From Sinonovacula constricta (Eukaryota; Mollusca; Bivalvia; Cardiida; Solecurtidae), in the NCBI GenBank assembly GCA_007844125.1, contig CM017569.1:11355686-11419685 (forward strand): DNA of 64,000 nt, given 5' to 3'. The notes under the pieces are model-generated. The model was given only the letters and a program-made list of their open reading frames with translations. It was not told the DNA's origin and ran no database searches. Below are positions 12,101 to 63,950 of the stretch, piece by piece; within the stretch, counting starts at the first letter, position 1; each line of letters starts with the position of its first letter. Made by a program: the position numbers and the translations under genes.

Positions 12101-15100
12101 GGATAAGACACACAAAGTTTATAAAATGCTTGCATTCAGTTTACTATTGTTGTTTTAAACTGAGCTAGGTGTTGCTGCAATTTATTTGTTCTAAGTGAAA
12201 ACATTTTTCTGAGAACCATAGTGATCTTAGGGTGTTGTTTATTTAAAAACTTAACTGTGTAAAACGATATCAGTAATACTAGGAGCGATCATTTGAGTAC
12301 ACTGATTTTGATCTATAATAAGTTCATTTAGATTTATCAACATTGTCTTTATAACTTTTTAACTGTTTGTTGTTTCCCTAGCAGCCACCAGCCCCACAGC
12401 CCACCTATCCCCCAGCAACAGTTTCTCTGTACAAGATTCTCCAGCACTCACTGCAAGGGTAAGTTAATCTGCTAGTCTTATGCAGCAAGAATGGTGAGTA
12501 ATGCAAAGCACATGCCAGTAGTTTAAATGTGTTATAGAAGGGAAAATATGAATCTTTTTCCCAACTGGCATGATGATTTAAAAAAGTTGTAGGTTCAAAT
12601 GGCATAATGAAATAATAGAAAGGTCTAAATATAAGTACCATTTGCCATTAATGAGTGGTAGATTCACCTCTTGGCACTCCCCTGACGGCTCAGCCTCTCA
12701 CTGCATGGGTTTGAGTCCCTGTCAGGGCTAAAGACTTTATGTAGAAAGGTCTTCCAGCTGACCTGTCTGTACAAGAGGATCTACTCAGATAGTTCTCTGG
12801 AGTCTTATAATTCCAAATTTGCTGGATATTGCAGGTTGACACTGATGATTACCTGTACCTGTCTGTGTTCTCTGCTATAGTGCAGGTTGACACTGATGGT
12901 TACCTGTACCTGTCTGTGTTCTCTGCTATAGTGCAGGTTGACTCTGTTTTAATTACCTCACCATGTATCTGCTGTACCTGTATGTATATCTGCTATCCTG
13001 CAGGTTGACTTTCTTATATCTGCTATCCTGCAGGTTGACTCTCTGATAATTACCTGTACCTGTCTGTTATCTGCTATTCTGCAGGTTGACTCTCTGATAA
13101 TTACCTGTACCTGTCTGTTATCTGCTATCCTGCAGGTTGACTGATAATTGCCTGTACCTGTCTGTGTTATCTGCTATCCTGCAGGTTGACTGTGATGATT
13201 GCCTGTACCTGTCTCTGTTATCTGTTATCCTGCAGGTTGACTCTCTGATAATTACCTGCACCTGTCTCTGTTATCTGCTATCCTGCAGGTTGACTCTATG
13301 ATAATTACCTGTACCTGTCTGTGTTATCTGCTATCCTGCAGGTTGTCTCTGTGATATTTACCTATACCTGTCTCTGTTATCTGTTATCCTGCAGGTTGAC
13401 TCTCTGATAATTACCTGTACCTGTCTCTCTTATCTGCTATCCTGCAGGTTGACTCTATGATAATTACCTGTACCTGTCTGTGTTATCTGCTATCCTGCAG
13501 GTTGACTCTGTGATATTTACCTATACCTGTCTCTGTTATCTGTTATCCTGCAGGTTGACTCTGTGATATTTACCTGTACCTGTCTCTGTTATCTGTTATC
13601 CTGCAGGTTGACTCTGTGATATTTACCTATACCTGTCTCTGTTATCTGTTATCCTGCAGGTTGACTCTGATAATTACCTGTACCTGTCTCTGTTATCTGC
13701 TATCCTGCAGGTTGACTCTGTGATATTTACCTATACCTGTCTCTGTTATTCTGCAGGTTGACTCTCTGATAATTACCTGTACCTGTCTCTGTTATCTGCT
13801 ATCCTGCAGGTTGACTCTGTGATATTTGCCTATACCTGTCTCTGTTATTCTGCAGGTTGACTCTCTGATAATTACCTGTACCTGTCTCTGTTATCTGCTA
13901 TCCTGCAGGTTGACTCTGTGATATTTACCTATACCTGTCTCTGTTTTCTGTTATCCTGCAGGTTGACTCTGTGATATTTACCTATACCTGTCTCTGTTAT
14001 CTGTTATTCTGCAGGTTGACTCTGATAATTACCTGTACCTGTCTCTGTTATCTGTTATCCTGCAGGTTGACTCTCTGATATTTACCTATACCTGTCTCTG
14101 TTATCTGTTATCCTGCAGGTTGACTCTGTGATATTTGCCTATACCTGTCTCTGTTATCTGTTATCCTGCAGGTTGACTCTCTGATATTTACCTATACCTG
14201 TCTCTGTTATCTGTTATCCTGCAGGTTGACTCTGTGATATTTGCCTATACCTGTCTCTGTTTTCTGTTATCCTGCAGGTTGACTCTGTGATATTTACCTA
14301 TACCTGTCTCTGTTATCTGTTATTCTGCAGGTTGACTCTGATAATTACCTGTACCTGTCTCTGTTATCTGTTATTCTGCAGGTTGACTCTCTGATAATTA
14401 CCTGTACCTGTCTCTGTTATCTGCTATCCTGCAGGTTGACTCTGTGATATTTGCCTATACCTGTCTCTGTTATTCTGCAGGTTGACTCTCTGATAATTAC
14501 CTGTACCTGTCTCTGTTATCTGCTATCCTGCAGGTTGACTCTGTGATATTTACCTATACCTGTCTCTGTTATCTGTTATTCTGCAGGTTGACTCTCTGAT
14601 AATTACCTGTACCTGTCTCTGTTATCTGTTATCCTGCAGGTTGACTCTCTGATATTTACCTATACCTGTCTCTGTTATCTGTTATCCTGCAGGTTGACTC
14701 TGTGATATTTACCTATACCTGTCTCTGTTATCTGTTATTCTGCAGGTTGACTCTGTGAAAATTAGCTGTACCTGTCTCTGTTATCTGCTATCATGCAGGT
14801 TGGCTCTCTGATAATTACCTGTCTCTGTTATCTGTTATCCCGCAGGTTGACTGTGAAAATTACCTGTACCTGTCTCTGTTATCTGCTATCCTGCAGGTTG
14901 GCTCTCTGATAATTACCTGTCTCTGTTATCTGTTATCCTGCAGGTTGACTGTGAAAATTACCTGTACCTGTTATTTGTTATCCTGCAGGTTGACTCTCTG
15001 ATAATTACCTGTACCTGTCTGTATTATCTGCTATCCTGCAGGTTGACTGATAATTGCCTGTACCTGTCTGTGGTATCTGCTATCCTGCAGGTTGACTGAT

Positions 15101-18100
15101 AATTGCCTGTACCTGTCTGTATTATCTGCTATCCTGCAGGTTGACTGATAATTGCCTGTACCTGTCCGTGTTATCTGCTATCATGCAGGTTGACTCTGTG
15201 ATAATTGCCTGTACATTCTGTGGTATCTGCTATCCTGCAGGTTGACTGATAATTGCCTGTACCTGTCTGTATTATCTGCTATCCTGCAGGTTGACTGATA
15301 ATTGCCTGTACCTGTCTGTGGTATCTGCTATCCTGCAGGTTGACTAATAATTGCCTGTACCTGTCTGTGTTATCTGCTATCATGCAGGTTGACCCTGTGA
15401 TAATTGCCTGTACCTGTCTGTGTTATCTGCTATCCTGCAGGTTGACTCTCTGATAATTGCCTGTACTTGTCTGTGTTATCTGCTATCCTGCAGGTTGACT
15501 CTCTGATAATTGCCTGTACCTGTCTGTGTTATCTGCTATTCTGCAGGTTGACTCTCTGATAATTACCTGTACCTGTCTGTTATCTGCTATCCTGCAGGTT
15601 GACTCTCTGATAATTACCTGCACCTGTCTGTTATCTGCTATCCTGCAGGTTGACTCTCTTATATCTGCTATCCTGCAGGTTGACTCTCTGATAATTACCT
15701 GTACCTGTCTGTTATCTGCTATTCTGCAGGTTGACTCTCTGATAATTACCTGTACCTGTCTGTTATCTGCTATCCTGCAGGTTGACTCTCTGATAATTAC
15801 CTGTACCTGTCTGTTATCTGCTATCCTGCCGGTTGACTCTCTTATATCTGCTATCCTGCAGGTTGACTCTCTGATAATTGCCTGTACCTGTCTGTGTTAT
15901 CTGCTATCTTGCAGGTTAACTCTCTCTGATAATTACCTGTACCTGTCTGTGTTATCTGCTATCCTACAGGTTGACTCTCTGATAATTATCTGTCTGTGTT
16001 ATCTGCTATCCTGCAGGTTGACTCTCTGATAATAACCTGTCTATTATCTGCTATCCTGCAGGTTGGCTCTCTGATAATTACCTGTACCTGTCTCTGTTAT
16101 CTGCTGTCCTGCAGGTTGACTCTGTGATAATTACCTGTACCTGTCTATGTTATCTGCTGTCCTGCAGGTTGACTGATAATTACCTGTACCTGTCTCTGTT
16201 AGCTGTTATCCTGCAGGTTGACTGATAATTACCTGTACCTGTCTCTGTTATCTGCTGTCCTGCAGGTTGACTCTCTGATAATTACCTGTACCTGTCTATG
16301 TTATCTGCTGTCCTGCAGGTTGACTGATAATTACCTGTACCTGTCTCTGTTAGCTGTTATCCTGCAGGTTGACTGATAATTACCTGTACCTGTCTCTGTT
16401 AGCTGTTATCCTGCAGGTTGACTCTGTGATAATTGCCTGTACCTGTCTGTGTTATCTGCTTTCATGCAGGTTGACTCTCTGATAATTGCCTGTACCTGTC
16501 TGTGTTATCTACTATCCTGCAGGTTGACTCTGTGATAATTACCTGTACCTGTCTGTGTTATCTGCTTTCATGCAGGTTGACTCTCTAATAATTGCCTGTA
16601 CCTGTCTGTGTTATCTGCTATCATGCAGGTTGACTCTCTGATAATTACCTGTACCTGTGTTTGTTATCTGCTATCCTGCAGGTTGACTGATAATTACCTG
16701 TACCTGTCTATGTTATCTGCTATGGTGCAGGTTGACTGATAATTACCTGTACCTGTCTGTGTTATCTGCTATCATGCAGGTTTACTCTGTGATATTTACC
16801 TATACCTGTCTCTGTTATCTGTTATTCTGCAGGTTGACTCTGTGAAAATTAGCTGTACCTGTCTCTGTTATCTGCTATCCTGCAGGTTGGCTCTCTGATA
16901 ATTACCTGTCTCTGTTATCTGTTATCCTGCAGGTTGACTGTGAAAATTACCTGTACCTGTTATTTGTTATCCTGCAGGTTGACTCTCTGATAATTACCTG
17001 TCTGTATTATCTGCTATCCTGCAGGTTGACTGATAATTGCCTGTACCTGTCTGTGGTATCTGCTATCCTGCAGGTTGACTGATAATTGCCTGTACCTGTC
17101 TGTATTATCTGCTATCCTGCAGGTTAACTGATAATTGCCTGTACCTGTCCGTGTTATCTGCTATCATGCAGGTTGACTCTCTGATAATTGCCTGTACTTG
17201 TCTGTGTTATCTGCTATCCTGCAGGTTGACTCTCTGATAATTGCCTGTACCTGTCTGTGTTATCTGCTATTCTGCAGGTTGACTCTCTGATAATTACCTG
17301 TACCTGTCTGTTATCTGCTATCCTGCAGGTTGACTCTCTGATAATTACCTGCACCTGTCTGTTATCTGCTATCCTGCAGGTTGACTCTCTTATATCTGCT
17401 ATCCTGCAGGTTGACTCTCTGATAATTACCTGTACCTGTCTGTTATCTGCTATTCTGCAGGTTGACTCTCTGATAATTACCTGTACCTGTCTGTTATCTG
17501 CTATCCTGCAGGTTGACTCTCTGATAATTACCTGTACCTGTCTGTTATCTGCTATCCTGCCGGTTGACTCTCTTATATCTGCTATCCTGCAGGTTGACTC
17601 TCTGATAATTGCCTGTACCTGTCTGTGTTATCTGCTATCTTGCAGGTTAACTCTCTGATAATTACCTGTACCTGTCTGTGTTATCTGCTATCCTACAGGT
17701 TGACTCTCTGATAATTATCTGTCTGTGTTATCTGCTATCCTGCAGGTTGACTCTCTGATAATAACCTGTCTATTATCTGCTATCCTGCAGGTTGGCTCTC
17801 TGATAATTACCTGTACCTGTCTCTGTTATCTGCTGTCCTGCAGGTTGACTCTGTGATAATTACCTGTACCTGTCTATGTTATCTGCTGTCCTGCAGGTTG
17901 ACTGATAATTACATGTACCTGTCTCTGTTAGCTGTTATCCTGCAGGTTGACTGATAATTACCTGTACCTGTCTCTGTTATCTGCTGTCCTGCAGGTTGAC
18001 TCTCTGATAATTACCTGTACCTGTCTATGTTATCTGCTGTCCTGCAGGTTGACTGATAATTACCTGTACCTGTCTCTGTTAGCTGTTATCCTGCAGGTTG

Positions 18101-21100
18101 ACTGATAATTACCTGTACCTGTCTCTGTTATCTGTTATCCTGCAGGTTGACTCTGTGATAATTGCCTGTACCTGTCTGTGTTATCTGCTTTCATGCAGGT
18201 TGACTCTCTGATAATTGCCTGTACCTGTCTGTGTTATCTACTATCCTGCAGGTTGACTCTGTGATAATTACCTGTACCTGTCTGTGTTATCTGCTTTCAT
18301 GCAGGTTGACTCTCTAATAATTGCCTGTACCTGTCTGTGTTATCTGCTATCATGCAGGTTGACTCTCTGATAATTACCTGTACCTGTGTTTGTTATCTGC
18401 TATCCTGCAGGTTGACTGATAATTACCTGTACCTGTCTATGTTATCTGCTATGGTGCAGGTTGACTGATAATTACCTGTACCTGTCTGTGTTATCTGCTA
18501 TCATGCAGGTTTACTCTGTGATATTTACCTATACCTGTCTCTGTTATCTGTTATTCTGCAGGTTGACTCTGTGAAAATTAGCTGTACCTGTCTCTGTTAT
18601 CTGCTATCCTGCAGGTTGGCTCTCTGATAATTACCTGTCTCTGTTATCTGTTATCCTGCAGGTTGACTGTGAAAATTACCTGTACCTGTTATTTGTTATC
18701 CTGCAGGTTGACTCTCTGATAATTACCTGTACCTGTCTGTATTATCTGCTATCCTGCAGGTTGACTGATAATTGCCTGTACCTGTCTGTGGTATCTGCTA
18801 TCCTGCAGGTTGACTGATAATTGCCTGTACCTGTCTGTATTATCTGCTATCCTGCAGGTTGACTGATAATTGCCTGTACCTCTCCGTGTTATCTGCTATC
18901 ATGCAGGTTGACTCTGTGATAATTGCCTGTACATTCTGTGGTATCTGCTATCCTGCAGGTTGACTGATAATTGCCTGTACCTGTCTGTATTATCTGCTAT
19001 CCCGCAGGTTGACTGATAATTGCCTGTACCTGTCTGTGGTATCTGCTATCCTGCAGGTTGACTAATAATTGCCTGTACCTGTCTGTGTTATCTGCTATCA
19101 TGCAGGTTGACCCTGTGATAATTGCCTGTACCTGTCTGTGTTATCTGCTATCCTGCAGGTTGACTCTCTGATAATTGCCTGTACTTGTCTGTGTTATCTG
19201 CTATCCTGCAGGTTGACTCTCTGATAATTGCCTGTACATGTCTGTGTTATCTGCTATTCTGCAGGTTGACTCTCTGATAATTACCTGTACCTGTCTGTTA
19301 TCTGCTATCCTGCAGGTTGACTCTCTGATAATTACCTGCACCTGTCTGTTATCTGCTATCCTGCAGGTTGACTCTCTTATATCTGCTATCCTGCAGGTTG
19401 ACTCTCTGATAATTACCTGTACCTGTCTGTTATCTGCTATTCTGCAGGTTGACTCTCTGATAATTACCTGTACCTGTCTGTTATCTGCTATCCTGCAGGT
19501 TGACTCTCTGATAATTACCTGTACCTGTCTGTTATCTGCTATCCTGTCGGTTGACTCTCTTATATCTGCTATCATGCAGGTTGACTCTCTGATAATTGCC
19601 TGTACCTGTCTGTGTTATCTGCTATCTTGCAGGTTAACTCTCTGATAATTACCTGTACCTGTCTGTGTTATCTGCTATCCTACAGGTTGACTCTCTGATA
19701 ATTATCTGTCTGTGTTATCTGCTATCCTGCAGGTTGACTCTCTGATAATAACCTGTCTATTATCTGCTATCCTGCAGGTTGGCTCTCTGATAATTACCTG
19801 TACCTGTCTCTGTTATCTGCTGTCCTGCAGGTTGACTCTGTGATAATTACCTGTACCTGTCTATGTTATCTGCTGTCCTGCAGGTTGACTGATAATTACC
19901 TGTACCTGTCTCTGTTAGCTGTTATCCTGCAGGTTGACTGATAATTACCTGTACCTGTCTCTGTTATCTGCTGTCCTGCAGGTTGACTCTCTGATAATTA
20001 CCTGTACCTGTCTATGTTATCTGCTGTCCTGCAGGTTGACTGATAATTACCTGTACCTGTCTCTGTTAGCTGTTATCCTGCAGGTTGACTGATAATTACC
20101 TGTACCTGTCTCTGTTATCTGTTATCCTGCAGGTTGACTCTGTGATAATTGCCTGTACCTGTCTGTGTTATCTGCTTTCATGCAGGTTGACTCTCTGATA
20201 ATTGCCTGTACCTGTCTGTGTTATCTACTATCCTGCAGGTTGACTCTGTGATAATTACCTGTACCTGTCTGTGTTATCTGCTTTCATGCAGGTTGACTCT
20301 CTAATAATTGCCTGTACCTGTCTGTGTTATCTGCTATCATGCAGGTTGACTCTCTGATAATTACCTGTACCTGTGTTTGTTATCTGCTATCCTGCAGGTT
20401 GACTGATAATTACCTGTACCTGTCTATGTTATCTGCTATGGTGCAGGTTGACTGATAATTACCTGTACCTGTCTGTGTTATCTGCTATCATGCAGGTTTA
20501 CTTGTGATAATTACCTGTCTCTGTTGTCTGCTATCATGCAGGTTGACTCTCTGATAATTACCTGTACCTGTCATCTGCTTTCATGCAGGTTGACATTCTG
20601 ATAATTACCTCAGTATATATGTGTTATCTGCTATCCTGCAGGTTGACTCTCTGAAGGAAGCCCTCCGCCATGTGAAGCAAGACAACCTTAGGCTTAAAGC
20701 CAGCAAGATGAGGGTAAGTAGGGACTATGTGTCATTGACATATTGTGATACTTAAATATGATCCAATACATCCCAATCCACAGCTTTACAATAATTGAGT
20801 TCCTTCAAACAAAATTGCATGTCTGTATTTAACTGCAGGACCAAATGGCAAGGTTACCTCCCCTGGTAGTACCTAAAAAGCCTATAGGACTGGGCAGCAA
20901 GACAGGAACTGTTACATTGGGAGAACCAGTTGAGGGAGGACAGGGAAAGGTCGAACTGGGCAGCCTGGTCAGACAGACTGCAGACCTGCTTCAGGTAAGT
21001 CTTACATAATGGCTGTCAAAGGTGGATAAATTATTTTGCTGAATGGCTTCAGACTATTGTCCATTGGTTGATATATGATCTTGTTAGAGTGAACCCCCTT

Positions 21101-49030: not shown

Positions 49031-49594
49031 GAGCATTAAACACACCCTCACATACATTAGCATGATTTATTAGCATCTAATTGTTGGTTTGTGAAAACAT
49101 ATATCAAGATAACTATCAGGGAGATTTGAATGTGTAATATCGTCGCCTTCTTACCCATTGAATAATCACAAATACGACAGAGGTCTTTCAATGCTCACTG
49201 TTTGTTGATGTCCAGTAATTGTGGAAAAAGTGGGCAATTAGAGTAAACGTGCGCTATTTAATGTAGATACGGAGAGCAGCTCTAAACCGTCGGGTCATTT
49301 CAGGATACCAAGTGGCCAGTGCAATAAAAGTGATAACAAGACGGGAGATTGTTGCACTTGACAAATATACCTTGTACACGGATTATGGCCTAGCTATATG
49401 ACCCACAGTAACTGTAGTTCGCTAATTGTCCAGCCGAATCTAATGGACACATAACCGGATTTTGTGTTTTATTTTCTTTGCCTTTGTTTTGTGGTTCTAA
49501 AGGCGCTTTTGCATGTGAAAACAAAATGTTGATTGACGTTATAACAACAGAACTGTAGTCGATCAGATTGTTTGTATAATTTTTGGATATACAC

Positions 49595-50405
49595 ATGGAT
49601 CAAATGTTTTCTCAAGACAAACTAATGTATTTACCCCATCCAGTCTCGGCAGTTCAGTTCCTGGAAGCTCGCCGGTTCTTTGAGCTGCAACAAATCCAAA
49701 GTTTGGTGGATAAGCAGCATCATTGTCTACAACTACTGAATTCGCTTGGACCGCTAAGACAATTGTCAATGGCTGAAAATATTTCTACAAGACATCAAGT
49801 GAAACCGTACACATCTTTTAGCATTAGAGACATTCTTGAAGGTGACAAACAGGACAATAATATTGCGCGGAACACCAGTCGTCTCCGACCGGAAAAGCCG
49901 CCTCCGGGAAATGAATGCTCACCACGACCGAGATGTTCATCAACTTCATCTTCGTCGTCATTGTCGGGATATTCTTCCGATCGGCATTGCGAAAACTCTT
50001 GCAGCTGTTCTCAAAATTCTCCACCAAAACGAAATTCTAACAAGAAGTTAGATACAGGTGTTTGTCATAGAATAATCCGGCCTTGGTGTCCGTCAAACCA
50101 AGCTGTGTCGCCGGCTTCTGCGCAGGGACCGGCGTCAAAAGACGACCGCCGTGAAGAACGACATTGTTCACATAGCCAGGGTCAAACTATTTCCGGCAAT
50201 GGGCGCAGGCGAGAGGACATATTCTTTAGAACTAATACTTCAAATCTTAAAAGAAATGTTCGTCATTTACATAATGGAGATAACGAGGAAATTGATGTGG
50301 AGAGATGTGACGATGAGGAGGAAAATCACTCCGACCCCGATATGTCCCCGCTCGGAGCCTTGGTTGCAATGTCGACAAATGCTTTCAAGGGATTAGAATC
50401 CTTTG
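49595..50405 (+). CDS. Lbx: Lbx exon 1
   Basis: It encodes residues 1-270 plus one base, with donor G|GTAAGTAT. It contains the eh1 motif, FLEARRFFELQQIQSLV (22-38, a helix absent from the vertebrate protein as I recall it), a RIIRPWCPS stretch (159-167) and the FKGLE block. The intron position just after FKGLE and before the homeodomain agrees with vertebrate LBX1. Confidence 0.95.
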
Positions 50406-53400
50406 GTAAGTATAAAATCATAAACTACTGACCATATTAACGAATTTAACATCAAAAGTAAAGCCAAAGACGCTTAGCTTTTGCCACACAAATTAAACAG
50501 GCATGGATATATAATAACATCCAACAAAATGTATAATTAACAATTCATTTTATTTAATAAATACAATTAAGCACAAGCGATTTTAAATGTTTAATTTTAA
50601 ACATGTTAAATTAAAACTATAAATAATAAGAGAAAACATAATTAGCTATGCATATTTTCTTTCTAACTATTTTATTAAAATCATATTAACAATACAGGAA
50701 AGAGATGTAAATGATGGCAAATGGCTGCAAAGAAAACGTAAGTTCAATATGTAAGCATAACAATGTCAACATTCCTACGAGAAAAATAAAATCAACTACT
50801 ATCATTCCTTAATCCGAAGTGATTTAAAAATAATAATAAATGTTTGCTTTAAAAAACAACTATTTATACCACAAAATGTTAACATATCGAGGGATGATAA
50901 GGATTCAACAAAGAAATGGCGGCCGAACACAATACCATTGCCCATTTATTTTATTTGTTAATACAAATTAATTACATATCATAGCTATCCAACAAATAAT
51001 CATGTCAATATAACAAGAGAGAACACAGAAATTTATAACAAAGTAAACTTTTTATTTTTCTTAGTTTAATTCTAGACGTATAAAATAATATTTGCAAATA
51101 AAAAGATAAAAATAGTAAAAACCACATTATTTACTCTTATTTTAGTAACTTTAAATTCACGCTGCACCATTGAATATATATACGAAGTTTTTACTTGTTT
51201 GGCCATTTCCTAATGTTCAACTTAATAGCAAAGTTGTGAAAAGTCTTCTCTTCTTCACGGACAATAAGAGTTAATTTTCATCAAATCGGAATGCTAAATA
51301 GAGCTAAACCATTTAGAATTTAGAATTTATGCCAAATGCACCGGCAATGGTTAAATAACAGTTTTCTTAATCGCCTTGGTTTATATTTCGACCTATGCAT
51401 TCTTTTATTAATATGAGCTTAACAAAGCGCTCTACACATCGTCATTATAAAGAAATGTGTAAAATATGGCAAGGTGAAATAAGATTTATTTGATCATTTA
51501 TTCTTTTTCCCGCCATATCCTAATAAATAAAGCCACGAAGTGATACAAATACAATACATGGGCTCTTGAAAACACGTGTCATAAAGGAATCATTTCATCA
51601 AAGACATTGAAAGCTAAGACAACGGACATGTAAACATTGCGAATATATTATGAATGTATGAATATATGTTTATGTATATACAATAAAAATGAAAACATAG
51701 CGTATGTATTTTGCATGTATGAATATATGTATGCATATATGTATATAAAATGAAAATGTAAAGATGGCGTATATATAATGTATGTATAAATATATATATG
51801 CATATATGTATATAAAATGAAAATGTAAAGATGGCGTATGCATAAATGTATCTAATATTTAAAAAAATGAAAATCAAATTAGACTATTTTATCACTAATT
51901 TATTTTATTTTATAAAAATAGAAAAATTACCAGTCTTCCTTAAGCTCTACTACATCTAACTTTAAATAAGACCATGCAAATAAGCTGAAGAAAAGTTATT
52001 TAACACTTACTTATCCTTCCAATTTAGCTTCAAGTATGGCTATAATTAGCATAATATGTTTAAAAGTTTGTTGAGGAAAGCAGTCCAAGAAACCAAGAAT
52101 CTGTATTGCAGTCTTCATCCAAAGTTATTGTCATAGAGGTAAGCATAACTTGCTAACTTTGCAATGTGATATGGCAAACCGACTTAAGCGTAAGTTATGG
52201 CATTTTATAACACAATCGACCAAACAGTATGTATTTTACGTTTTACACTGTTAGAATAATCGTAACTGGGAAATGAAGTTCAATATAATTACTCTAGTTA
52301 AATAAAGAACATTCCTTATTGTCTTACATTACAATGCTTTGAAGTTGTTTATGTTTATTTTTTAATCATACATTGGAATGATAACTGTCTTTTTCAACTT
52401 AGTTTAAATTCTGCTACCTGTTTTGATTGACTTACTTAACGTTTTAATGGTAAAATAGTTTTGTAGTAGAGCGGGTGTAATGCAACAGTAATAAAGATGT
52501 ATACAAAATAGGTCCAAAATGCATTGAAACTTGGTTCGAGTAGCCGTGAAGGCAAGTACGGCCAACTTCGCTTCTTTCTCTTTTTCTCTCTTTGACCAAT
52601 TTTTCTGTCACTCATATACGGATTTAGAAAGATCAATGCCTTTATAATCTTCTATTTTTTATATGCTCATTAAACACATTGTGATTAATTTCACTTAAAT
52701 ATTCGGAAGTTTATATGATAAAATTAAATTTGAATAAAATCAAAACTACGTACAAAAAATTAGTTGTTATATGCCATTATCAACCAATATACTTTTTATA
52801 GAGAATTTCAGGAAGCTTTGAAATAAATGGCTATCTAAAGCTCGGCGACATCTTTATCTAACATACTATGCAGAAAAATTGAGAAAATTGGGCCTTTAAA
52901 ATGGGAGTATTTATGGGAACAATTGTACCATTTTTGTTAAATTGTGTGTTGTTTGAATTGAACCAATCAACATATTTGTTTGTTTTCTAAATGAATTAAT
53001 TTGTTTCCAGCTATTAGCAAATCACTTTTCATTAATAGTTTATGACATGATATTTGGAATTTTCTCATTTCGAATAAAGAGACATCCTTATATATGAATT
53101 AAGATAAAAACATCCCCAAAAGCATAACCGGATAGTACATTCTTTAAGAGCTGTGCACACACGTCTTATTTGAGGACCGCAACATATCAGCTGTTAAAAT
53201 TTTCTATTTCTAAATATTATCTATTACACTTGCTATACCGTCAGCTGACTTTTTATAGCACTCCTAAAACATGCACCTTTTCCTGATCAAGAGAGCACCT
53301 ATGTTAACGCTTGTTTATGAGGTTTTTTATACTGAAAGTAACTTCTTAATTGTAATTGTGGTTTTGACTTAAAACATAGCGAAACAACTCAATTATTATT

Positions 53401-62400: not shown

Positions 62401-63950
62401 ATCATCTTATTAATATTACATTCAGTTTTCTTTCTTAGTTATCAGTATTTCACACGCACAATCGCACATACAAACATACGTACACTTTTACATTTCGTAC
62501 AAACATTATCGTATTTCCGTAGAAACAGTATCTTTCATAATAGGGGTTATGTCCTTTGCTTACTAAGTTTTATGTTTAAAGTCAAAAGTAATGACTATAA
62601 TCAAATTAAAAAACTCACTATTGAAGCTGTAGTTTTTTTTAATATTTTTCTACAAGTGCTTTAAAATGTTTACATATTATCTTTATGCAACTTGTAATTT
62701 GTTCCTTAGTTCATTTTCTTAAAGACCAAATGAATATGAACATTGGGTTTAAATATAAACAATGGATGCTTTTATATTTTCTGAAAAAAGAAAACAAATC
62801 AGTTTAATTGAATCGCAGTAGTATTATTGGTTAATTAAGGATAAAGGACAGAAAACAATTATTAAAAGAACTGCATAACAATACAAAGAGCGAAAAGTAA
62901 CACATAACGTTCTGGAGCGGTCATTTTGCAAACTAGGTTCTTTTTATGAAGATCATTTTCTGAGAGGCAAGAAACAAGACATGAACCAACTAACAGTTAG
63001 CACTTGCATATGTAATAAATTGTCAACCAAATAGACAGTGTTGTCAAAAAATGCAACTACACATGCAATACTATATATACAAATATTCGAATAAGTGATC
63101 AAAATTAAAATTAATGAATAGAGTATATGCCTATATCTATAGAAATATAAAATCTCATAACATTTAACGTTATTTAACATTTTCGGCTCAGTTTTAAAAC
63201 AATGCTTTTTACATTTTGAGCATTTGCAATCTTCGTACAAATACAAATATGAACACTGTCAAATGTTACATGGTTGTCTTGAGTTCCGTTCGGCTAGGTA
63301 AGGTGCTACGAAAGAAGAAGGAATAAGTATTAATTCCAATTTGTCATAGAGAAGTAATTTTGGTAAGGTCGATATATTATAATTCAGCTTTAAAAGTTGT
63401 CCATTTTCTTTAAATTAGACTTAATGATATTTGAATGATAATTTAAGCTTACAAATAATATGTTGTCTACTACAAATCGACCCATAAACTATACCGCTGT
63501 AAGGAAATATGAACACAGCTTTCTTATGTCCATGGGTACATATTTGTTTGAGAACCTTTAAATACAGGCCAAATTTTTTTTGTAAGAAACAAATTAAAAC
63601 AAATACATAAAGGTATGCATTATCTCGTTCCAGAGAATCCCAATTCCGACCAACACGGCGACTGTCGATCTCAGATTCCGAAGAAGAAGCGGAAAACCCG
63701 AACTGCTTTCACAAACCAGCAGATTTATGAGTTGGAAAAACGGTTCATTATGCAGAAATACCTGACACCGGCAGACAGGGATGAAATCGCTTCCAAACTA
63801 GGACTGTCTTGTGCCCAGGTGATCACGTGGTTTCAAAACCGACGGGCAAAGTTCAAACGAGACATTGACGAGATGAAGAAGGATTCTGGTGTCATCAATC
63901 CGCCGGCATCCATGCATCAAGAAACAGATTCTTGTACAAGTGTAGGTTAG
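49595..63950 (+). CDS. Lbx: Ladybird-type homeodomain transcription factor, two exons
   Basis: This is a nuclear DNA-binding regulator of the NK-linked Lbx family, which specifies muscle and neural cell types in other animals. Exons 49595-50405 and 63634-63950 join in phase (G|AG, Glu271) to give 375 residues. The N-terminal half has an eh1 Groucho-binding motif, FSIRDIL (75-81), a Ser-rich run (115-127), an acidic run (231-243) and SPLGALVAMSTNAFKGLE (251-268), the counterpart of the vertebrate SPLCAL...TFKGLE block. The homeodomain (289-348) contains QIYELEKRF, YLTPADRDEIA and QVITWFQNRRAKFKRD. It has Thr47, typical of Lbx and Tlx, and Gln50/Asn51. The chosen start is the first ATG in frame. 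Only 27 residues follow the homeodomain, fewer than in vertebrate LBX1. Confidence 0.96.
51655..51850 (+). repeat. AT-rich minisatellite, three units of about 65 bp
   Basis: Units share GCATATATGTATATAAAATG and AAAATGTAAAGATGGCGTAT. Confidence 0.9.
54821..54843. repeat. Perfect 10-bp hairpin
   Basis: GTTAACTGTA, a TTT loop, then TACAGTTAAC. The arms also read as GTTAAC half-sites of HNF1 type. Confidence 0.9.
61624..61919 (-). pseudogene. Dispersed repeat copy 3, open GPCR-like TM6-TM7 frame
   Basis: On the minus strand about 98 codons are open. After a basic stretch (LPTDRSKAITV) there are two or three hydrophobic segments: MFALFVQCLITNLFLLFAWL, then YVAMLIGLCHIFLFYVGILN FVFFILM, followed by a basic tail HLSRRN. 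This layout suggests TM6, an extracellular loop with two Cys, TM7 and helix 8 of a class A receptor, though NPxxY is absent. It is bounded by stops with no start codon of its own. It could be an exon, a pseudogene or a coding relic in a repeat. Copies 1 and 2 are related but broken. Confidence 0.4.
63634..63950 (+). CDS. Lbx: Lbx exon 2 (homeodomain) with stop
   Basis: Acceptor CTCGTTCCAG. It encodes ENPNSDQHGDCRSQIPKKKR, the homeodomain and a 27-residue tail ending SCTSVG, stop TAG at 63948. GTTAGT directly at the stop could act as a donor (GTAG|GTTAGT), so a longer isoform continuing past the window is possible. Confidence 0.94.

What the first reader, a model, noticed from the sequence alone, without database searches (positions are those of the whole stretch)
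12825..20641. A 7.8-kb minisatellite built from the host intron's own 3' splice site
About 150 tandem units each carry a branch-point-like CTGAT/TTGAC, a pyrimidine-rich run, CTGCAG and the first 13 bases of the real exon at 20642. The true acceptor of an essential gene (DCTN1) is the last member of this array. Either a functional splice site seeded the expansion, or the array overran and replaced the splice site. The spliceosome must choose the final copy among many near-perfect decoys, so the array may act as a splice-site buffer, a recursive-splicing ladder or a source of isoforms. Seeing the repeat and exon share sequence is direct; the functional roles are inference.
Basis: partly seen in the sequence, partly recalled or inferred. 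Interest (0 to 1): 0.9.

Follow-up and report, generated by a model that had tools for sequence, protein, structure and literature searches.

The report
Splice-site minisatellite in clam dynactin gene
In a bivalve's dynactin-1 gene, a piece spanning the start of one exon has been copied about 156 times in the intron before it, yet an assembled transcript shows the last, exon-attached copy being used; a second, younger array of the same type spans the end of another exon of this gene.

Summary
The gene is DCTN1; its nearest named relatives are the clams Dreissena and Mya. Intron 12459-20641 ends in 156 head-to-tail units, each opening with a copy of the real exon's start and closing with an acceptor; AG is intact at 154 of 157 boundaries, boundary 157 being the true acceptor at 20642. 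The evidence favours seeding: the shared exon bases encode residues of the kind found there in orthologues (chance 0.2-0.8%), so a working junction gave rise to the array. A near-identical assembled transcript joins 12458 to 20642. On a generic matrix 117 of 156 decoys score at least as well as the true acceptor. All 156, read through to the exon, would bring in a stop. Donor-like sites in the array are mostly poor (best 4.51; the gene's ten donors 3.84-12.66). Best explanation: exon definition favours the acceptor beside the exon's strong donor. This is a large member of a known kind, the amphioxus 'mirages'; human ABCA7 has a donor-side analogue. A second, young mirage lies in the same gene outside the window: nine identical donors, 82 bp apart. 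Buffer and recursive-ladder ideas gain little support; length-dependent control of exon skipping is open.

The parts
12385..12458 (+). DCTN1 exon upstream of the array; donor AGG|GTAAGT. Acceptor is a TAGCAG pair: P0001 uses the second AG (exon start 12385); the first would give 12382.
12459..12834 (+). 5' part of the intron before the array; no degenerate array unit detected
   Evidence: left flank score 17, 200 shuffles up to 23
12835..20641 (+). tandem array of 156 units, each an acceptor-junction copy: exon-derived GTTGAC(TCTCTGA), branch-point-like CTGAT, pyrimidine-rich stretch, TGCAG
14851..20502 (+). higher-order blocks, near-identical pairs (14851-15925/18569-19643 at 99.4%; 15922-17001/17651-18730 at 99.8%; 17129-18515/19116-20502 at 99.6%), sign of recent block duplication
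20589..20641 (+). last, edge unit with a diverged middle and an extra AG (CTCAG), 26 AG-free nt before the true AG; ends in the true acceptor CTGCAG
20642..20713 (+). authentic DCTN1 exon [24 protein letters not shown], 72 nt, phase 0-0; its first 13 bases are shared with the repeat; donor AGG|GTAAGT

Best explanation
The array is a 'mirage': a minisatellite born by tandem duplication of a segment spanning the 3' splice junction of a DCTN1 intron (about 40 nt of intron end plus the first 13 nt of the exon). It grew on the intron side by repeated unequal exchange or slippage, including recent block duplications. The exon-attached copy stays the working acceptor because acceptors are paired with donors across the exon: only the last acceptor lies 72 nt upstream of a strong donor, while the array's own donor-like sites are mostly poor. 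An allele in which a decoy were mainly used would give a stop codon and be selected against in what is, from recall, an essential gene. Shown: the anatomy; exon bases that encode orthologue-like residues; one assembled transcript using the last copy; a stop from every decoy read through to the exon. Inferred: exon definition as the discriminator, the duplication route, near-neutrality of the decoys.
For: Exon starts in relatives: Dreissena IDSLKQAL, Mya IDFLKEAL, Tegillarca IASLKEAL, Mytilus IVTLKEAL, Capitella IESLKDAL, Apostichopus VESLKKAL, Branchiostoma IDALKVAL. Random 12-mers of array composition encode residues seen in orthologues at all four sites in 0.19% of draws with nine chosen orthologues and 0.75% with all 36 distinct octamers from 118 aligned proteins. 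P0001 (source label lgn, which I take from recall to be Logan; 1816-nt contig, too short for the 8183-nt intron) reads [13 protein letters not shown] and differs from the window's protein at 2 of 426 alignment columns. Donor at 20713 scores 10.17; the 707 GTs of the array reach at most 4.51. Every one of 156 decoys read through to 20713 meets a stop. Blocks 99.4-99.9% identical. A donor-side mirage in the same gene fits the same rule: nine donors of equal score 11.62, only the exon-attached one keeps the frame. Amphioxus mirages likewise do not appear to disturb regular splicing (passages of PMC3087553, and PMC3902484).
Against: No junction counts: minority use of decoys is not excluded, and in ABCA7 retention of one VNTR unit was seen at about 2% (passages of PMC5954066). 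The donor contrast is not clean: four of ten DCTN1 donors score 3.84, 4.61, 4.72 and 5.35, and seven array units reach 4.51; in neighbouring intronic sequence 11 of 355 non-donor GTs exceed 5, and with only 59 distinct GT contexts in the array a count of zero is not significant. The hexamer CAG|GTT is the least changed 6-base window (0 of 50 changes in 32 distinct 53-mers, P = 0.002; 0 of 18 in 14 distinct 49-mers; but 2 of 34 in 12 distinct 51-mers), which plain neutrality does not predict; yet 10 of 53 dinucleotides are equally intact in the 53-mers. Vertebrate-type DCTN1 does not share VDSL (human/pig 0 of 4), and L at the fourth site holds in 16 of 36 distinct octamers. Splice-site matrices are recalled human-like frequencies.
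Confidence: 0.75

Rival explanations
1. The array regulates DCTN1: a large platform of decoy acceptors binds U2AF/U2 and, in a length-dependent way, promotes skipping of the 72-nt in-frame exon or retention of the intron. It could hold together with the best explanation.
For: Human ABCA7 VNTR, whose unit carries the exon 18 donor, goes in length with skipping of exon 19 (passages of PMC5954066). Decoy exons mediate intron retention in OGT and other genes (passages of PMC12017769). The exon is 72 nt, phase 0-0. The junction hexamer is unusually conserved. The array RNA is 63% pyrimidine against 50-54% in five neighbouring introns.
Against: The one transcript seen includes the exon. No isoform data. 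OGT decoys are exons with donors; donor-like sites here are mostly poor.
Confidence: 0.2
2. Recursive-splicing ladder: units act as ratchet points (AG|GT), used and then regenerated as donors, so that the intron is removed stepwise.
For: AG directly followed by GT at 154 of 157 boundaries; units of about 50 nt resemble the ~50-nt RS-exon geometry described for Drosophila (passages of PMC8605326); CAG|GTT conserved; seven units have CAG|GTTGGC at 4.51, inside the range of the gene's weakest donors.
Against: The usual unit, CAG|GTTGAC (138 copies), scores 0.7, below all ten DCTN1 donors (3.84-12.66). The intron is only 8.2 kb.
Confidence: 0.05
3. The array overran the exon and replaced an older splice site, so the exon start is repeat-derived.
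For: The exon start matches the unit for 13 bases and then stops abruptly. The nearest relatives have I, not V, at the first codon.
Against: The 13 bases encode orthologue-like residues (0.19-0.75% by chance), exon length is unchanged against relatives, and a Tegillarca gene model reads 25 extra residues exactly at this junction, which fits an old intron position. The donor-side array in the same gene plainly carries coding exon.
Confidence: 0.05
4. Assembly artefact: copy number or position of the array is wrong in this assembly.
For: Block repeats at 99.4-99.9% identity are hard to assemble; no reads were available.
Against: DCTN1 exons flank both sides in order on one 55-Mb contig.
Confidence: 0.04

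Closest known systems
Amphioxus 'mirages' (Adh3, TnC, globins BflGb6 and BflGb9, PGBD5; passages of PMC3087553, and PMC3902484)
   Same: Tandem units span an exon-intron boundary, many units hold AG/GT signals, regular splicing seems undisturbed; both 5' and 3' boundaries can be affected.
   Different: Here a bivalve; 156 extra units against 6 and 3 repeat units reported for the two BflGb6 haplotypes; one gene carries both an acceptor-side and a donor-side array.
Human ABCA7 intron 18 VNTR (passages of PMC5954066)
   Same: Repeat unit contains the real splice site of the adjacent exon; up to about 427 repeats, on the intron side.
   Different: 25-bp donor-side unit with measured effects on skipping of exon 19; here about 53-bp acceptor-side unit with no measured effect.
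Minisatellite-type tandem repeats at exon-intron boundaries of human segmental-duplication genes (passages of PMC2812944)
   Same: Repeat variation at exon-intron boundaries.
   Different: Short arrays (on average 4 units) reported to form novel introns or alternative transcripts.
Human IFI6 (6-16) minisatellite giving multiple splice donor sites (title seen in a reference list; content recalled; paper not held)
   Same: Minisatellite built from splice-site sequence.
   Different: Donor sites, used as alternatives by its title; here acceptors, with only the last one seen used.
Drosophila recursive-splicing ratchet points (passages of PMC8605326)
   Same: Juxtaposed AG|GT about 50 nt apart.
   Different: Ratchet points need a working donor; most units here score poorly as donors.

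Membership tests
Mirage (minisatellite spanning an exon-intron boundary) | tandem minisatellite array | tested here: met
   TRF 153.3 copies, period 53
Mirage (minisatellite spanning an exon-intron boundary) | unit contains both intron end and exon start of the adjacent real exon | tested here: met
   array runs 13 bases into exon 20642-20713; exon part encodes orthologue-like residues
Mirage (minisatellite spanning an exon-intron boundary) | splice signals kept in many units | tested here: met
   AG at 154 of 157 boundaries
Mirage (minisatellite spanning an exon-intron boundary) | normal mRNA is still made | tested here: met
   one assembled contig, P0001; frequency not measured
Mirage (minisatellite spanning an exon-intron boundary) | length instability, germline or somatic | not testable with these tools
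   one assembly only; near-identical blocks suggest recent size change
Recursive-splicing ratchet point | AG|GT juxtaposition | tested here: met
   154 of 157
Recursive-splicing ratchet point | functional donor regenerated at the junction | tested here: inconclusive
   138 CAG|GTTGAC at 0.7, below all ten DCTN1 donors; 4 CAG|GTTAAC at 3.27; 7 CAG|GTTGGC at 4.51, within the range of the weakest real donors (recalled matrix)
ABCA7-type splice-modulating VNTR | array length changes exon inclusion | not testable with these tools
   no RNA or population data

The most novel reading that the evidence does not exclude
The decoy junctions are kept by selection: the array is a working platform of about 150 U2AF/U2 binding sites whose size tunes inclusion of the 72-nt DCTN1 exon or the speed of intron removal, possibly through steps that leave no trace in mRNA. 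The near-invariance of CAG|GTT across otherwise diverging units would be its signature, and mirages at both kinds of splice site in one gene would make DCTN1 a length-tunable splicing locus.
Probability: 0.08. Interest if true: 0.85.

Novelty: new member of a known kind. Interest (0 to 1): 0.52.

Why it matters
It is a natural experiment on how the spliceosome picks one acceptor among 157 of similar intrinsic strength, and one donor among nine of equal score in the same gene. Both cases point to position relative to the exon, not site strength (use of the first donor is inferred). It also suggests that splice junctions can seed minisatellites well beyond amphioxus and human ABCA7, so such arrays may be an overlooked source of intron growth, of splicing variation between individuals and, as the amphioxus globin authors proposed, of new introns.

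Tried and rejected
Chance resemblance between exon and repeat: rejected. Repeat overrunning the exon: disfavoured. A repeat dispersed in the genome: a search with the first 576 bases gave 19 matches of 77-100% at this locus and 7 of 67-69% on C1; the C1 array is a different 27-bp minisatellite, and a 45-bp array beside it stops about 86 nt before an exon. tRNA gene in 12400-21000: none. Array-encoded protein in the database: none of 7991 scored candidates for the 176-aa frame reached E 0.001; a weak negative. RNA folding of the last 732 nt: more stable than 20 of 20 shuffles, z -4.31; not pursued, since a repeat with units that pair can give this without function. Survey for mirages elsewhere: 58 of the 151 Ras-family matches, in 44 loci, had no TRF array within 60 nt of the match; match ends are domain ends, not splice junctions, so this is a weak test. 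A WD40 survey did not complete. Transcript support for the donor-side array: none of the same species among 9 hits.

Literature on splice-junction minisatellites: 30 of 719 listed; 3 of 3; 20 of 22; 10 of 14; 15 of 163; 0; 6 of 8; 10 of 27. By title or passage I found amphioxus mirages, the human ABCA7 VNTR, human boundary repeats (PMC2812944) and, in a reference list, IFI6. Most listed papers were not opened and subscription papers are mostly not held, so the lack of a bivalve report is weak.

Confidence in the best explanation went from 0.80 to 0.75, recursive ladder from 0.04 to 0.05, overrun from 0.04 to 0.05. The first background count (17 of 409) had included real donors and exons; the clean count is 11 of 355.
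Full report
WHAT IS THERE. Tandem Repeats Finder gives 12830-20654, period 53, 153.3 copies. Cut at the junction TGCAG|GTTGAC there are 157 boundaries, the last being the true exon start at 20642, hence 156 extra units, 74 of them distinct. AG is intact at 154 of 157 and GT follows at all 157. 'Each unit' is too strong: the exon's first 13 bases are exact at 56 of 157 boundaries and within one mismatch at 103; CTGCAG is exact at 119; a branch-point-like yTnAy lies 18-45 nt before the AG in 134 of 156 units. Large blocks are 99.4-99.9% identical, a sign of recent block duplication. An independent mid-unit anchor found 148 sites, of which 3 lack CAGGTT within 65 nt, so the cutting did not hide lost junctions.

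WHOSE GENE. The flanking exons encode DCTN1 (PDB dynactin subunit 1, E = 4.9e-40). Among the best 120 of 1265 protein hits, the nearest named relatives are Dreissena polymorpha (60% identity) and Mya arenaria (57%), so I take the source to be a bivalve. The window is C15:11355686-11419685 of a 1.22-Gb assembly; a search with the first 576 bases found close matches at this locus only.

WHICH CAME FIRST. At the start of this exon relatives read IDSLKQAL (Dreissena), IDFLKEAL (Mya), IASLKEAL (Tegillarca), IVTLKEAL (Mytilus), IESLKDAL (Capitella), VESLKKAL (Apostichopus) and IDALKVAL (Branchiostoma), against VDSLKEAL here. Random 12-mers of the array's composition encode residues seen in orthologues at all four sites in 0.19% of draws with nine chosen orthologues and in 0.75% with all 36 distinct octamers from 118 aligned proteins, most of them vertebrate. 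Agreement is looser outside molluscs and annelids: human/pig share 0 of 4 residues. A Tegillarca gene model (P0005) reads 25 extra residues exactly here, which fits an intron at the same position. I conclude that the exon start is old coding sequence and the repeat was derived from the junction.

IS THE LAST COPY USED. A protein predicted from a 1816-nt contig (P0001; source label 'lgn', which I take from recall to be Logan; no name) matches the window's DCTN1 at all but 2 of 426 alignment columns and reads [13 protein letters not shown]. A contig of that length cannot hold the introns, so it is spliced RNA or a copy of it. It joins 12458 to 20642. One difference is a missing alanine at the TAGCAG acceptor of the preceding exon, showing use of its second AG. 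This is one assembled contig and says nothing on how often decoys are used.

HOW THE RIGHT COPY MAY BE CHOSEN. On a matrix of recalled frequencies the true acceptor scores 10.2 and 117 of 156 decoys score as well or better, so strength does not mark it. Its neighbourhood may: 72 nt downstream lies a donor of score 10.17, while the 707 GTs of the array reach at most 4.51. The contrast is not clean. Of ten DCTN1 donors in the window six score 8.16-12.66 and four 3.84-5.35; seven array units (CAG|GTTGGC) reach 4.51, while the usual unit, CAG|GTTGAC (138 copies), scores 0.7. In neighbouring intronic sequence 11 of 355 non-donor GTs exceed 5; with 59 distinct GT contexts in the array, zero is no sign of selection. 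Splicing to any decoy with read-through to 20713 meets a stop in all 156 cases; on the other hand 37 of 156 single units would be stop-free in-frame exons if both their ends were used. I infer that exon definition selects the last acceptor and that selection removes alleles in which it does not.

AN ODD DETAIL. In 32 distinct 53-base units the hexamer CAG|GTT shows 0 of 50 inferred changes, the only one of 53 circular windows with none; a composition-matched draw reaches this in 0.2%. In 14 distinct 49-mers it shows 0 of 18, in 12 distinct 51-mers 2 of 34. Over all 74 distinct units it shows 2 of 108 against a window mean of 12.2. This hints at constraint on the decoys, but 10 of 53 dinucleotides are equally intact in the 53-mers and the units are not independent. 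It stays unexplained.

A SECOND ARRAY IN THE SAME GENE. I fetched 60 kb upstream. At L046:6595-7329 (C15:11342280-11343014, 13.4 to 12.7 kb before the window) nine copies of an 82-bp unit span the donor of another DCTN1 exon (YEMVTTFN...LLQSIMRQYE, L046:6514-6641). The nine donors GAG|GTAAGT score 11.62 each; the eight units between them show two sequences, seven being identical, so this array looks young; only the first donor keeps the frame, donors 2-9 meet a stop at codon 43. No same-species transcript was found over this junction, so use of the first donor is inferred. In both arrays the exon-attached copy is the one that gives DCTN1. Of the 151 Ras-family matches, 58 were examined and none had an array within 60 nt of the match, so such arrays are not at every exon; the DCTN1 pair may be luck or a hotspot.

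COMPARISON WITH WHAT IS KNOWN. Amphioxus 'mirages' are minisatellite-like tandem duplications of exon-intron boundaries, at 5' or 3' ends, that seem not to disturb regular splicing and vary in length (passages of PMC3087553; passages of PMC3902484). The bivalve array meets the four defining features I could test; length instability I could not test. Human ABCA7 has a 25-bp VNTR holding the exon 18 donor, up to about 427 copies, whose length goes with skipping of exon 19; one-unit retention, that is decoy use, occurs there at about 2% (passages of PMC5954066). That gives the best testable functional idea here, since exon 20642-20713 is 72 nt and in phase 0-0. Tandem repeats at human exon-intron boundaries can also form novel introns (passages of PMC2812944). 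Recursive splicing needs a working donor at the junction (passages of PMC8605326), which most of these units lack by score. Decoy exons that promote intron retention are known in OGT and others (passages of PMC12017769), but those have donors.

VERDICT. A large, well-anchored new member of a known kind, with the order of events largely resolved and a second example in the same gene. Claims of a ladder, buffer or isoform source have little sequence support; length-dependent regulation is possible and untested.

Noticed in passing
G000:C15:11342280-11343014 (L046:6595-7329), 13.4 to 12.7 kb upstream of window base 1: Second, donor-side mirage in DCTN1: nine GAG|GTAAGT donors exactly 82 bp apart, nearly identical units; only the first keeps the reading frame.
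   Followed up: yes
12379-12385: Tandem acceptor TAGCAG (NAGNAG type) on the DCTN1 exon before the array; an assembled contig uses the second AG, dropping one alanine.
   Followed up: partly
63552-63947 and 49580-50428: Homeodomain (Pfam PF00046, E = 3.5e-22, first frame only) downstream of DCTN1; by recalled motif an LBX/ladybird gene, which would echo a DCTN1-LBX2 neighbourhood recalled for human chromosome 2. The second frame was not searched.
   Followed up: partly
L010:994-3021 and L009:5372-9204 (contig C1): Two long minisatellites (45 bp x 45 and 27 bp x 142) beside an exon that reads like mLST8 (recalled); the 45-bp array stops about 86 nt before that exon, so it is not a mirage.
   Followed up: yes
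12660-12730: Short stretch with a B-box-like GGGTTTGAGTCCC (motif recalled), perhaps a tRNA-derived SINE remnant, just before the array; ARAGORN finds no tRNA gene.
   Followed up: partly
20589-20641: The edge unit next to the exon has an extra AG (CTCAG), 26 AG-free nt before the true acceptor, between the branch-point-like CTGAT and the used AG.
   Followed up: partly
9476, 22425, 22763, 10078: Four DCTN1 donors are weak on a human-like matrix (5.35, 4.61, 4.72, 3.84), so this genome may tolerate poor donors or the matrix fits it badly.
   Followed up: no
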